Shown here piece after piece: positions 10,912 through 57,547 of a stretch of DNA of 64,000 bases (its first letter is position 1; each line of letters opens with the position of its first letter). The DNA is taken from contig OX638345.1 of NCBI GenBank assembly GCA_951813535.1, forward strand, positions 3,402,608-3,466,607. The letters run 5' to 3'. The notes under the pieces were generated by a model. It saw nothing but the letters and a program-made list of their open reading frames with translations, searched no databases and was not told where the DNA came from. Both the position numbers and the translations under genes were made by a program. This DNA is from an uncultured Dehalococcoidia bacterium. Lineage in GTDB: Bacteria; Chloroflexota; Dehalococcoidia; Lucifugimonadales; UBA3495.

Positions 10912-11943
10912 ATGACGCCCTGGGCATCAATCACCGCAGACGGCGAAATCATCATTGGAGACGAGCCTCGCCCGGAACAGAGGGCGGGCATTCCGCCACC
11001 CCGTAGGCAGACCAAGAAAGAGCAGCAGGACATCATCGGGATCGAGAAGTTCTACAAGGAGATCCCCGACGAGGAGGCCGCAATCGCCTTCGTTGAGGAA
11101 CGCATCTGGGGCGACACGCCGTGGTGTCCTCGCTGTGGGCAGGATGACACCGTGTATCGGGTCAAGAGCGGCAAGCCCCAGAGCCACCGCTGTCGTGGCT
11201 GCCGGCAATATTTCTCCGTGCGTACCGGCACGGTCATGGAGAACACCAACCTGCCCGTTCGCAAATGGTTGCTCGCCATTCACCTGATGCACACCAGCCG
11301 CAAGGGTATCAGCAGCGTCCAATTATCCAAAGCTCTGGACGTTACGCAGACAACCGCTTGGTTCCTGGGGCACCGCATCCGCGAAGCGATGAAGGAAGGC
11401 AACGTGATCATGGGTGAAGTGGTGCAGGTTGATGAGGCGTACATCGGCGGCAAGGAGCGATGGAAGCACTCGGATAAGAAACTGCACGAGCGTTGGCGGG
11501 AGGGTAGGGCACTCGTATTCGGCCTTAAAGAAGACGGAATAGGTGGCAAGGTTAAGGCGTTCCCGATATGGTACGACGGCAATGAGGCCCTCCAGGACGA
11601 GGTCATGCTCAACGTGAACCCGGGTTCGACGGTGTACACCGACAGCCACCCGGCCTATCGCAACCTTTCACGCTACGGCTACAATCATGCGACGGTGAAC
11701 CACCACATCCACCAGTACGTGAACGGGATGGCAACGACGAACGGGATCGAAAGCTTCTGGGCGCTGCTGAAACGCGGGTACGTCGGCGTCTTCCATTACA
11801 TGAGTTGGAAGCACCTGCACCGTTACGTGGATGAGTTCGCCGCCCGCCACAACGCTGGACAAGGTAACGGGTTTCGCACCATCGGCGAGGTTCTGAGACG
11901 TGGGGTGGGCAGACGGCTCACCTACGCACGATTGACCGCATAG
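10912..11943 (+). CDS. IS1595-family transposase
   Basis: This 343-residue transposase is near the usual family length. An N-terminal zinc ribbon has Cys72, Cys75, Cys94 and Cys97 (CPRCG and CRGC). The ISXO2-type catalytic core shows VDEAYIGGKE (Asp174), VYTDSHPAYR (Asp244) and NGIESFWALLKRG (Glu280), with the family's conserved MSWKHLHRYVDEFAARHN near the end. AAGGAGGAAATACC gives a strong ribosome-binding site for ATG 10912. No IS ends lie close around the gene; the matching ends are at 9225 and 19542. The gene eight bases downstream is a likely passenger. Confidence 0.93.
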   Translation: MTPWASITADGEIIIGDEPRPEQRAGIPPPRRQTKKEQQDIIGIEKFYKEIPDEEAAIAFVEERIWGDTPWCPRCGQDDTVYRVKSGKPQSHRCRGCRQYFSVRTGTVMENTNLPVRKWLLAIHLMHTSRKGISSVQLSKALDVTQTTAWFLGHRIREAMKEGNVIMGEVVQVDEAYIGGKERWKHSDKKLHERWREGRALVFGLKEDGIGGKVKAFPIWYDGNEALQDEVMLNVNPGSTVYTDSHPAYRNLSRYGYNHATVNHHIHQYVNGMATTNGIESFWALLKRGYVGVFHYMSWKHLHRYVDEFAARHNAGQGNGFRTIGEVLRRGVGRRLTYARLTA

Positions 11944-13491: not shown

Positions 13492-14352
13492 AGCCGGGCT
13501 GGACAGATATGATCGTACAGAATTCGCTAACGCGTCCGGAGCATTGGCAGCAATCCTGAGGCCATTTTCCTGGATGGCTACGCTGACCGCACCTTCGGCG
13601 AACTTGTCGGTAAGATGTAGTTGGAAGCTGCTTACTTCGGCGCTGGGCACGTCTCGAAGGTAAAACCGGAGGAATGGGTTTTCCCCTTGTGTAGTTATCC
13701 TCACCCAAAAGTTTTGCCCTTCGTGTCCCGCCTGCAATTCTGCGGTCAAGCGAGTGATGAACGGGCAAATTTCTTTGTCGAGTGCCGCTTTGACTTGCTT
13801 TGCTTTTCCTCCGTATCCCCACAAAAAGAATTCGACTACCCGGCCGGCGTCATCATCCTCTTCCCAACCAAGTAAACATTCGCCGTCCTCTGCTGGGACA
13901 TCTATCCTGATCGTTTGAGATCGGTTAGCCTTGATCACCATCCGATTGGTCGGGCCGGCCTGTGGCATCGCGTTGGTATAAATCTTCTTGGTTGCTACCC
14001 ATCCAAGGTCCAACAATTCCTGCTCTTTCAAAGACGAACCAGACTTGATCGCACCGCCCGCCTCGATTTCGTAGGTGGGGCCACTGACAAGGTAACGGAG
14101 TTCGTACAGGAGAATCCTAACGGCGGGGATCCTAAAAACCGCCATGATGGCTGTCCAAGCGATCGATGCTATTGCTGACAGGATGATGCGCGACGCAGGG
14201 GTGCCGTCGTTGACGATCCATCCGATAAGAATGATGGTCCCAAACAGCAACAGCCCCGAACCTAGGGCGAGTGCAACATCCGGCGATAGGAGTGTTTTCA
14301 CGGTGAATACAGGCGCTCCGTGCTGGTGTACGGCATGGGCCTCGGGTGCCAT
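13468..14352 (-). CDS. Two-TM protein with a large soluble domain
   Basis: The protein has 294 residues. Two membrane helices lie near the N-terminus (ALALGSGLLLFGTIILIGWI and IILSAIASIAWTAIMAVF). About 200 soluble residues follow, including QTIRIDVPAEDGECLLGWEE and GQNFWVRITTQGENPFLRFY. No catalytic motif was recognised. The layout (membrane anchor plus sensor-like domain) recurs among defence effectors, which is only a resemblance. It converges on the gene at 12640, and upstream of its start lies the non-coding, RNA-like region. Confidence 0.6.
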   Translation of the reverse strand: MAPEAHAVHQHGAPVFTVKTLLSPDVALALGSGLLLFGTIILIGWIVNDGTPASRIILSAIASIAWTAIMAVFRIPAVRILLYELRYLVSGPTYEIEAGGAIKSGSSLKEQELLDLGWVATKKIYTNAMPQAGPTNRMVIKANRSQTIRIDVPAEDGECLLGWEEDDDAGRVVEFFLWGYGGKAKQVKAALDKEICPFITRLTAELQAGHEGQNFWVRITTQGENPFLRFYLRDVPSAEVSSFQLHLTDKFAEGAVSVAIQENGLRIAANAPDALANSVRSYLSSPALAHRDDG

Positions 14353-14653
14353 CGTACACCAGCACGGCTGCCGTCGCTACCAGTATAAATCCGCACGGAT
14401 GTGCTTACAAGGTATCCCACCCGTCCCCTTACTATTCCTCGCGTTCACTTCTCCTCGCGCTTTCTTGCCCGTTTTGGGCTAATACGCGATCAATTGAGCT
14501 TTGCGCTCCGCCCGCCTCGCGTGCACCTTTCCGATCTCCCTGCCCTCCAGATACGATCTCGGAGTTCGGGATAGCTACGGCGTCCGCAATTTATCGCACT
14601 CTGGAATTTAGGACGAACCCCTGATAATTGACACCCCGGCGTTACCGTGATTT
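14353..14653. other. Non-coding stretch before the RNA candidate
   Basis: About 300 bp lack any credible coding frame. This probably holds the leftward promoter for the 2TM gene and a rightward promoter for the structured RNA. No clear -35/-10 pair could be chosen. Confidence 0.4.
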
Positions 14654-14788
14654 GATGGTCGCGCTACTGCCGAGGGTCTTGGGGCACCCGCCCCACCCGA
14701 CGTTTTTTGAGGTTTCCGCTTGGGATGGCTTTATGCCTCCCTTGCGAACCTCACATCGGGGACCCGGCGGCAGTAGCATGACGCCATC
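14654..14788 (+). ncRNA. Candidate multibranched structured RNA
   Basis: Nested complementary segments define a compact fold. P1 pairs GATGG (14654-14658) with CCATC (14784-14788), continuing with CTACTGCCG (14664-14672) against CGGCAGTAG (14768-14776). P2 pairs GGGTC (14774 is outside; the 5' strand is 14674-14678) with GACCC (14761-14765). P3 is a hairpin GGGGC-ACCC-GCCCC (14681-14694). P4 pairs CCCGA (14696-14700) with TCGGG (14756-14760). P5 pairs GAGGTT...CGC (14709-14719) with GCGAACCTC (14744-14752). It is capped by GGGA.GGC (14722-14729) against GCCTCCC (14735-14741). A U6 run (14703-14708) is left unpaired. No known class was recognised. Fold and strand are inferred by hand. Confidence 0.6.
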
Positions 14789-14887
14789 CTTTTGGCCGCA
14801 AGGGGGGTTCCAGATGCGCCTAATTCATGCGCTCCAAACTGCTGGCAACTTCTACGGGGAGATTGTGCCAATCCATATCTGAACATT

Positions 14888-15086
14888 GACGGCCCCCTCT
14901 CCTAGCACGAGAAGGGGCCGTCTGCCTGGGCATCCGTACCGGGACGCCCAGAGGCCCGAAACAGGCCGCGCGAGATTATATCGGCGGTTGCCCTTTGGTT
15001 CAAACCGGTATGGGTGCGAAATTCGCACCGAAAGCCGGCCCGTCCGCCGAACACGGACGGCAGGAACCACGAGGCAGCCGTTTTTT
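14888..15086 (+). ncRNA. Hairpin-rich leader ahead of the HNH gene
   Basis: Successive hairpins fill this stretch. GACGGCCCC/GGGGCCGTC (14888-14922) has nine perfect pairs, and CTGGGC/GCCCAG spans 14926-14951. GGCC/GGCC spans 14953-14967, GGTGCG/CGCACC spans 15013-15029, and CCGTCCG/CGGACGG (15040-15060) has a 7-nt loop. A U6 run at 15081-15086 follows ACGGC...GCCGT, which overlaps the previous hairpin, so the two are mutually exclusive as in an attenuator. The HNH start codon lies 38 bases further on. It may be a leader or terminator region, or the 3' part of the RNA that begins at 14654. Confidence 0.5.
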
Positions 15087-15124
15087 CATGTCCGGTTGCC
15101 CTGGGATAAATGGAGGCAACCAAT

Positions 15125-15334
15125 ATGCCAATCTCGGCCAAACGTAAGAAGGAACTGTATAACGAACAGAACGGGCGATGCGCTGTTCATGGCGGACCTG
15201 CACCCATCGGCAAAATGCAAGTTGACCGCATCATACCCGGCGCACACGGGGGTCGATATGAGCCTGGCAACGTGCAACTGCTTTGCGGCCCATGCAATCA
15301 GAGGAAGGGCGCACGATTGTGGCCGCGAGGATGA
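15125..15334 (+). CDS. Small HNH endonuclease
   Basis: The protein is 69 residues, the size of a stand-alone phage-type HNH domain. The fold is visible as CAVHGGPAP, MQVDRIIPGAHGGRYEPGN and VQLLCGPCNQRKGAR. The central His lies in AHGG and is followed by the conserved Asn and a second CxxC. TGGAGG at 15111-15116 supports ATG 15125. HNH nucleases next to structured RNAs occur in group I introns and HEARO/IscB elements, but this protein has no RuvC domain and is far shorter than IscB. It might nick target DNA during element spread, which is inference. Confidence 0.8.
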   Translation: MPISAKRKKELYNEQNGRCAVHGGPAPIGKMQVDRIIPGAHGGRYEPGNVQLLCGPCNQRKGARLWPRG

Positions 15335-15385
15335 TCCCGAGTAGTTCCCGCAACGCACAGACACAGGGGACGGGGGATCGCCAAT

Positions 15386-15976
15386 ATGTCAGCTTTGAGA
15401 ACTACGCTGGGTCTGTTATTGGCCGCTTACCTCGCGCTGGCGGTATGGAGGGTGGTTCGGTTCCCCAAACCGCCGCCATCATGGTTCCCTGAACCGATAT
15501 GGCGCGTCACCGACCCGCTGATGACCTTGAGCGAACGGTGGCCTTGGGTGGCTTTGGGCGTGGCCGTTGCCATGGCCTTGTTGGCATTGGTTCTATTGAT
15601 GTCTCGCGCTGATTGGGATCGAATTCTTACCGGTGCCGGTGGGAGCGCGTACGCGTTGTATATCGTTAATGCGGTCATGTTGGTCATTAGTTGGGCTTGG
15701 CGGGCCGACGGCGGCTTGTCCGGACCGATAGCTTGGGCGGTGTCCTGGGTTGGTATTCCACCCGTTGCTCCCGAGGCGTGGCCTTTGTGGGTGGTGGTTG
15801 TCGTCGCCACCATTGCTGGATTGTTGGTAGTGGTGCTCCCGGTCGCGATTGTGGTCGCTGTAGCGATTTCGATCCGCGCGACGGTGCAAACACTCCGGCG
15901 ACGCCCGGAGGGACTGGATCAATCGTCGACGGACCAACTACCGGCTCAGTATTGGCGAGGTCGCCGCATCCAGTAG
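15386..15976 (+). CDS. Multi-TM membrane protein of unknown function
   Basis: This 196-residue protein has about four to five predicted helices, including TLGLLLAAYLALAVW, VALGVAVAMALLALVLLM, AYALYIVNAVMLVISWAW and WPLWVVVVVATIAGLLVVVL continuing into the next hydrophobic stretch. The cytoplasmic tail is Arg-rich. No family was recognised. It starts a rightward run of small genes (15.4-16.7 kb) with short gaps. Confidence 0.6.
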   Translation: MSALRTTLGLLLAAYLALAVWRVVRFPKPPPSWFPEPIWRVTDPLMTLSERWPWVALGVAVAMALLALVLLMSRADWDRILTGAGGSAYALYIVNAVMLVISWAWRADGGLSGPIAWAVSWVGIPPVAPEAWPLWVVVVVATIAGLLVVVLPVAIVVAVAISIRATVQTLRRRPEGLDQSSTDQLPAQYWRGRRIQ

Positions 15977-16005
15977 ATCAATCCCATCGGAGTAGGAGAT
16001 TGCGC

Positions 16006-56329: not shown

Positions 56330-56998
56330 TTGCGGCTACTCTGCCGTTTCGCATGTTATCGCCTTTGTCCCAGTTGGGAAACGTTGCTGGCGCGGTCTGT
56401 CTGACGACGCTCGAATAAGAGCAGCGAAAATTCTTCTGCATCATAGTGCGTCTTGACAACCCGAAGCCTCCCGCCTATCGTCATCCCTGCCACAGTCGAG
56501 GCTCCGGCGCACTGCGCTACCTCAAAATATGCGAGTTATTCCGTTCTGGTAGGCACTCGTGCCTCCTAGCGGAACTCGCATTTGGAGCCGGCGACTGTGG
56601 CAAGAAGCCTATCCAGTGGCCGCTAGGAGGTTCCAAATGCGGATTGACCCGCCGCTGCCGTCGCTTCGGTCGGCAGCCCTTCTCGCCATCCCGCTCGCCC
56701 CGCGCACGACTTCCCCCTGGGTTCAAGATGCGTGCACGGCTTCCGCAATCCCCGCGCGACAGCATCCCCCGCGGCCGGACCCCGCCCCACCGGCGCGGTC
56801 GCCGCAGTCCAGCGGGCGCAATGATGCGACCCCTGATGGATGGACGCCAGATCAGGCGTCTTCCCGTCGCCCTCGGTGGCAGGCCCGTTTCATGATTCCG
56901 AAACGGGAGCGGTCGACACGCGCCGTTTCCATCCGCTGCAGCCGGCCGGAACATTCATCCACCTCAGCAGTCGGCTTTCGGCTGAAAAGGAGCTGATC
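56330..56998. other. Non-coding stretch with a large inverted repeat
   Basis: About 670 bp without a credible gene. A 60-bp hairpin lies at 56525-56584. The phrase CCTATCCAGTGGCCG occurs here (about 56607) and again at about 57778. Arg/Pro-rich frames in both directions are shadows. Confidence 0.45.
56525..56584. repeat. Long imperfect inverted repeat (hairpin)
   Basis: Left arm (AAATATGCGAGTT, then CCG and AGGCAC) and right arm (GTGCCTCCTAGCGG, AACTCGCATTT) form about 24 pairs with small bulges and almost no loop. CCGCTAGGAGG recurs once more at about 56621. No T-run follows, so it is more like a mobile hairpin or a fold-back element than a terminator. Confidence 0.6.
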
Positions 56999-57547
56999 AT
57001 GGGGTCCGTTACACGATTGCCGTTGCCACTCCTGGTGGCGTTTGGATACTTCGCGGTGCTGGCGATTCTCTTCGCGATCTTTCCCCCGGCCGGCGGCGTG
57101 CTGGCCATCATCGGGTTCGTGTTGGGAGTGCCCTACGTGTTCGTCATCAAGGCCAAGTCCAACAACAGGCGATTCGAGACCGCGCGAACCGACCTCGCGC
57201 CGGGGGAGGAGGTGCGCTTCTGGTGGAAGGCGGGTTTCCTGTCGCTGGGCGAGCGCTGGGTGGTTGTTACCACGGAACGGCTGCTGATACCGCAGGTGAG
57301 CCTGATGAGGATACGCACCCGCTCGATCCCGCATTCCGAGATCTACCGGACCGACACGTCGCAGCGCTCCATAGGCGTGGGCGCCTACGGCGGCGGTTTA
57401 CTGGTGGGGACCACGCTGTCCAACCGTTACCTGGAATTGGACCTGGTCAACGGCGATGTGGTCCGGGTGAGAGTGGACCGGCCCCAGACGCTTCAGCAGC
57501 GCCTCAATGACGCCATCGCCGAGTGGGCCCAACGTCAGGGGGCATAG
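56999..57547 (+). CDS. Membrane protein with bacterial PH domain
   Basis: GCTGAAAAGGAGCTGATC precedes ATG 56999. The 182 residues start with two TM helices (LPLLVAFGYFAVLAILFAIF and GVLAIIGFVLGVPYVFVI). A bPH-like domain follows with LAPGEEVRFWWKAGF, GERWVVVTTERLLI and LELDLVNGDVVRVRVDRPQT. Such proteins are common small membrane factors of uncertain role. Confidence 0.75.
   Translation: MGSVTRLPLPLLVAFGYFAVLAILFAIFPPAGGVLAIIGFVLGVPYVFVIKAKSNNRRFETARTDLAPGEEVRFWWKAGFLSLGERWVVVTTERLLIPQVSLMRIRTRSIPHSEIYRTDTSQRSIGVGAYGGGLLVGTTLSNRYLELDLVNGDVVRVRVDRPQTLQQRLNDAIAEWAQRQGA

What the first reader, a model, noticed from the sequence alone, without database searches (positions are those of the whole stretch)
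14888..15334. Hairpin-rich leader coupled to a 69-residue HNH nuclease
At least five hairpins precede the HNH start, the last overlapping a terminator-like stem with U6, so the fold could switch gene expression or be part of a larger RNA with 14654-14788. RNA next to HNH recalls group I introns or HEARO/IscB, yet no RuvC domain exists and the protein is tiny. It may be an RNA-associated homing unit of another kind.
Basis: inference. Interest (0 to 1): 0.75.

Follow-up and report, generated by a model that had tools for sequence, protein, structure and literature searches.

The report
Double RNA switch-like leader before HNH
The hairpin-rich stretch is not an RNA partner of the tiny nuclease but an exchangeable regulatory mRNA leader whose first half belongs to an undescribed family of RNAs that hide the ribosome-binding site of dozens of unrelated, mostly envelope-protein genes in this bacterial phylum.

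Summary
The hairpins are real, and the structured region is longer than reported (14661-15121, just downstream of a TTGACA-17-TTTGAT promoter). It holds two modules. Module A (14661-14816) belongs to a family absent from Rfam 15: 96 matches (94 distinct) plus a few in other classes of the phylum, up to 7 per genome. All ten pairs of its closing stem covary. It ends in a Shine-Dalgarno (SD) sequence and start codon. Two pairings that were not in the search models covary: anti-SD with SD, and a second apical strand with the tail. That implies an SD-sequestering pseudoknot. Downstream genes are diverse and enriched in lipoproteins and membrane proteins. Module B (14888-15121; 9 copies, one genus) has conserved hairpins, a terminator-like stem and an SD-sequestering hairpin, here behind a short ORF and before HNH. 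In three close relatives the A-B leader precedes a different protein; in the nearest, homology stops at the start codon. 56 other HNH-containing loci lack it, except one with an unrelated gene between. No intron or HEARO match was found. The HNH has Arg where all 20 aligned relatives have the catalytic His. Most likely a two-step cis-regulatory leader (orphan-riboswitch-like); signal unknown, switching inferred.

The parts
14628..14656 (+). sigma70-type promoter TTGACA-N17-TTTGAT
   Evidence: sequence; TTGAC sits 33-35 nt before the RNA in 49 of 94 family members, about 0.3 expected from background
14661..14816 (+). module A: 156-nt structured leader RNA ending in SD and ATG
   Evidence: CM match 186 bits; family of 96 matches; covariation
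14663..14672 (+). P1 5' arm of module A (10 bp with 14768-14777)
   Evidence: 98.7% paired, all 10 pairs with double-sided changes in 94 sequences
14768..14777 (+). P1 3' arm of module A
14722..14729 (+). apical strand a (GGGAUGGC), pairs with a'
   Evidence: a:a' swap test z 10.9
14736..14746 (+). anti-SD strand b (CCUCCCUUGCG)
   Evidence: b:b' swap tests z 18-19
14783..14789 (+). tail strand a' (GCCAUCC)
14797..14807 (+). SD strand b' (CGCAAGGGGGG), 11 bp with the anti-SD
   Evidence: isolated duplex -22.3 kcal/mol
14814..14882 (+). 22-aa ORF started by module A (MRLIHALQTAGNFYGEIVPIHI)
   Evidence: same position and length in G001, 5 codons in G006/G010
14888..14922 (+). hairpin 1, beginning 5 nt after the ORF stop
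   Evidence: -24.4 kcal/mol; sequence replaced but stem kept in G006/G010
14920..15020 (+). module B core: hairpin 2 (14927-14950), P2 (14953-14967), P3 (14968-14985), possible loop pairing 14932-14942 with 15005-15015
   Evidence: CM R2 matches in 6 of 14 genomes of the genus, 9 copies
14984..15086 (+). terminator-like stem GCGGUUGCC..GGCAGCCG-U6
   Evidence: matching long-range stem read in the other module-B loci, U run of 4 or more in 5 of 9
15094..15121 (+). hairpin enclosing the HNH SD (GGAGG 15112-15116)
   Evidence: -11.5 kcal/mol; kept in G001, G006, G010
15125..15334 (+). 69-aa HNH domain protein, DR in place of the catalytic DH
56453..56639 (+). second module A in the window with its own promoter (TTGACA-N17-TATCGT) and start codon
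   Evidence: 73.5 bits, E 5.7e-15

Best explanation
The region is a cis-regulatory mRNA leader made of two exchangeable devices in series. Module A is transcribed from its own promoter and folds into a stem-closed domain. Its apical arm carries an anti-SD that pairs with the SD just downstream, while a second apical strand pairs with the tail, giving a pseudoknot that blocks translation start; when the apical arm pairs with itself the SD strand is released from the pseudoknot. Here A opens or closes a 22-codon leader ORF. That ORF stops 5 nt before hairpin 1 of module B, whose terminator-like stem and SD hairpin then decide whether the gene behind (here an HNH-domain protein) is transcribed and translated. 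Shown: conservation, covariation, promoter and SD geometry, and exchange of the downstream gene. Inferred: the switching itself, A-to-B coupling through the leader ORF, and the signal (small molecule, protein or translation state), which is unknown.
For: Excess structure z -7.4. Covariation score 0.537 against 0.155 shuffled (0/500) and 0.10 or less when slid. The SD/anti-SD pairing was in neither the R1 nor the R3 model, yet own partners beat swapped partners at z 18-19, and a:a' at z 10.9; the local SD hairpin that was in the models does not covary (z -1.6). Promoter at a fixed distance. Same A-B leader before another protein in G001, G006 and G010, homology with G001 ending at the start codon. 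A and B in tandem again in L148 and twice in L158. Downstream proteins of 150 aa or more: 84% with a hydrophobic N-terminus against 39% of background ORFs, 49% lipobox-like against 9%.
Against: No transcript data. No universally conserved large pocket: most invariant positions are paired or in the SD. Both nested and pseudoknotted folds occlude the SD in the window copy, so the ON state is uncertain. Module B's terminator has a weak U run in several loci, and its loop pseudoknot is clear only in the four closest sequences. Downstream genes give no hint of a ligand.
Confidence: 0.77

Rival explanations
1. Module A is a fixed translational silencer or RNA-stability element rather than a switch: the pseudoknot keeps expression of envelope proteins low and protects the 5' end, with no signal sensed.
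For: Downstream genes are functionally diverse; few invariant unpaired positions; very stable closing stem at the 5' end.
Against: The apical strand a keeps pairing potential both with b (z 8.2) and with a' (z 10.9), as expected of a switch; repeated use in front of unrelated genes suggests a shared condition.
Confidence: 0.25
2. A transcription attenuator only: the leader peptide (window 22 aa, ARASP-type in relatives) is the sensor, read by the ribosome as in amino-acid or drug attenuation, and module A just sets its translation rate.
For: A short ORF lies before B in every copy read; in several relatives the peptide keeps A-R-A-S-P, with AGC and TCT codons both giving Ser; a terminator-like stem follows.
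Against: The window's peptide lacks ARASP and G006/G010 have only five codons; most module A copies have no module B.
Confidence: 0.2
3. RNA-associated homing or RNA-guided nuclease unit (intron, HEARO/IscB-like).
For: Structured RNA directly upstream of an HNH ORF; the HNH domain is weakly similar to those of IscB and Cas9d.
Against: No Rfam intron or HEARO match at E <= 5; leader shared with non-HNH genes; HNH relatives lack it; catalytic His replaced; no RuvC in the 69-aa ORF.
Confidence: 0.02
4. Chance GC-rich hairpins with shared ancestry only.
For: The region is GC-rich.
Against: z -7.4; covariation far above shuffled and slid controls.
Confidence: 0.01

Closest known systems
SAM-II riboswitch, metA leader of Sinorhizobium meliloti (PMC9373788)
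   Same: A pseudoknot occludes the SD; the first start codon is followed by a terminator and a second start codon.
   Different: Module A is much larger (own knowledge of SAM-II size), with a three-way-junction-like domain and an 11-bp anti-SD helix, no Rfam match, and a different gene set; no ligand known.
preQ1 and other translational pseudoknot riboswitches
   Same: Anti-SD:SD pairing as expression platform.
   Different: Their compact aptamers are not present (no match at E <= 5); sensing not shown here.
Leader-peptide transcription attenuators
   Same: Short ORF, then terminator-like and competing hairpins before the gene (module B).
   Different: The leader ORF is itself started by another regulatory RNA (module A); no amino-acid run in the peptide.
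HEARO / IscB and IshB omega RNA
   Same: Structured RNA upstream of an HNH gene.
   Different: No covariance match, no RuvC, leader not tied to HNH.

Membership tests
HEARO / omega RNA (IscB group) | match to the family covariance model | tested here: not met
   no match at gathering score or at E <= 5 in 14000-16000
HEARO / omega RNA (IscB group) | association with a nuclease gene across members | tested here: not met
   about 90 diverse downstream genes; no other locus with an HNH gene directly behind the leader
Group I / group II intron | intron core covariance model and exons on both sides | tested here: not met
   no Rfam match; leader starts at a promoter, ends at a start codon, and no interrupted gene is seen
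Known riboswitch class in Rfam 15 | match to any of 4227 models | tested here: not met
   only tRNA at gathering level in the window; nothing on module A or B in 20 family loci at E <= 1
Translational cis-regulatory RNA (functional kind) | conserved structure in the 5' UTR that pairs with the SD | tested here: met
Translational cis-regulatory RNA (functional kind) | signal-dependent change of expression | not testable with these tools
   needs transcripts and reporters
Leader-peptide attenuator (module B) | translated short ORF followed by mutually exclusive terminator and antiterminator | tested here: inconclusive
   ORFs and stems present in the copies read; exclusivity only predicted
HNH endonuclease | catalytic His of the D-H motif | tested here: not met
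   D-R in the window, D-H in all 20 aligned relatives

The most novel reading that the evidence does not exclude
Module A is a new riboswitch class (or RNA-based sensor) that coordinates a regulon of secreted lipoproteins and membrane proteins through a two-strand exchange that covers the SD, and that can be stacked on a leader-peptide attenuator to make a two-stage controller with interchangeable output genes.
Probability: 0.4. Interest if true: 0.78.

Novelty: new variant of a known kind. Interest (0 to 1): 0.62.

Why it matters
It adds an undescribed, strongly covarying regulatory RNA with several copies per genome in a little-studied lineage. It gives a ready regulon (lipoproteins, DUF805, TM2, RCC1 and TPR proteins) for finding the signal, and shows that structured leaders can be paired with different genes with the break at the start codon.

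Tried and rejected
HNH-linked RNA, intron and HEARO: rejected by Rfam and by the leader's other genes. Mobile element on phages or plasmids: no DNA match, and an exact anti-SD...SD pattern is absent from viral contigs. Antisense RNA from a minus-strand TTGAAC-N17-TATAAT (about 15006-14975): present in the window, G001, G006 and G010 but not in the other module-B copies, so left as unexplained. RNA thermometer: judged unlikely because the anti-SD helix is long and GC-rich (-22 kcal/mol); not tested. IS1595 passenger: a transposase lies near the leader in G006, G010 and the window, but no match was seen in the G001 stretch. Weak module-B matches L103 and L104 judged spurious on reading. The first duplex-energy swap test was distorted by sentinel values and was replaced.

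Full report
The coding sequence behind it is a 69-aa HNH-domain protein from ATG 15125.

The leader is not specific to HNH. In the nearest relative (G001) 468 aligned bases are 85% identical, from 14662 to 15128, and homology stops at the start codon; the gene behind is an unrelated 'MRDQFVADVxDFGKYGLLRRL' protein, which also follows the leader in G006 and G010. In G008 a copy of the 5' part stands directly before a DUF805 membrane protein. So there are two modules.

Module A (14661-14816). A covariance model from four sequences found further full-length matches in the order, including a second copy in this window at 56487-56639. A model rebuilt from 22 sequences found module A in 18 of 37 genomes of the family, up to seven per genome, with rarer matches in the class and in other classes of the phylum. 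On 94 distinct sequences 90.4% of the cells of the stated structure are paired against 64.5% in shuffles; the covariation score is 0.537 against 0.155 shuffled and at most 0.10 slid; every pair of the ten-pair closing stem has double-sided changes. The alignment was fitted to the model structure, which favours the modelled helices. But the anti-SD:SD helix and the a:a' helix were not in the model. An alignment-free test (own partner against partners swapped between loci) gives z 18 for the first; the segment test gives z 19.1 and 10.9, whereas the local SD hairpin that was in the model gives -1.6. TTGAC lies 33-35 nt before the RNA in 49 of 94 cases, so the RNA most likely is the 5' end of the transcript. 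Most copies end in SD and start codon, and the genes behind are enriched in N-terminal hydrophobic segments and lipoboxes; Pfam finds RCC1, TPR, DUF805, TM2, CAP, GmrSD and others. Neither module matches Rfam 15. The papers held show a Chloroflexi-1 motif and no similar description, but many subscription papers are missing and the organism's name is withheld.

Module B (14888-15121). Four close copies and five diverged ones occur in one genus. It follows module A at about 250-260 nt in L148 and in two of the three L158 copies; in L157 and the third L158 copy it lies between genes. It begins with a stable hairpin just behind a short ORF, then two or three conserved hairpins, a long terminator-like stem and an SD-sequestering hairpin. 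The short ORF of several copies ends in a conserved A-R-A-S-P peptide, with AGC and TCT both used for serine, which points to selection on the peptide.

Mechanism. In the window copy the nested pairings (apical hairpin -10.4, local SD hairpin -8.6) are weaker than the exchanged pairings (a:a' -11.5, anti-SD:SD -22.3) when taken as isolated pieces. I read this as two exclusive arrangements, with translation off when the tail pairs into the apical arm. What favours the other arrangement is unknown. Coupling from A to B through the 22-codon ORF follows from geometry (the stop is 5 nt before hairpin 1) and is inference. The closest published case in layout is the S. meliloti metA SAM-II leader, with an SD-occluding pseudoknot, a first AUG, a terminator and a second AUG (PMC9373788); the RNA itself is different.

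The HNH protein. All 20 relatives aligned have the D-H motif; the window has D-R, and a CxxH replaces one CxxC. It may be inactive or altered. Searching 57 loci with HNH genes (the window's own included) with both models gives only the window itself and one module A, 1.3 kb upstream of another HNH gene with a lipoprotein gene between.

Limits: E-values of the shortened calibrations are rough; the background ORFs include non-genes; counts of genomes depend on sampling and on Infernal's stricter filters in large searches; no transcript evidence exists here.

Noticed in passing
window 56487-56639: Second module A with its own promoter, followed by a 119-aa ORF, a CCCGTTTC..GAAACGGG hairpin near 56890 and a small membrane protein at 57000; L081 and L093 carry similar copies with about 100-aa ORFs.
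   Followed up: partly
G000:C1:1835063-1835222 (L138): Third module A of the genome, before a lipoprotein gene.
   Followed up: yes
window 15125-15334: HNH protein has Arg where all 20 aligned relatives have the catalytic His.
   Followed up: yes
window 14975-15006, minus strand: TTGAAC-N17-TATAAT inside module B, conserved in the four closest copies only; possible antisense promoter.
   Followed up: partly
L148, L157, L158: Conserved leader peptide M(x)(x)ARASP(T) before module B, Ser encoded by both AGC and TCT.
   Followed up: partly
window 14319-14366: Near-perfect 48-nt inverted repeat at the start of the minus-strand ORF 14352-13468.
   Followed up: no
window 10912-11943; L065; L066: IS1595-type transposase near the A-B leader in three of the four closest genomes; in L066 it ends about 80 nt before module A.
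   Followed up: partly
L178 409-2231: Module A, lipoprotein gene, then an HNH gene with intact D-H and a nearby IS1595-like transposase; probably coincidence.
   Followed up: partly
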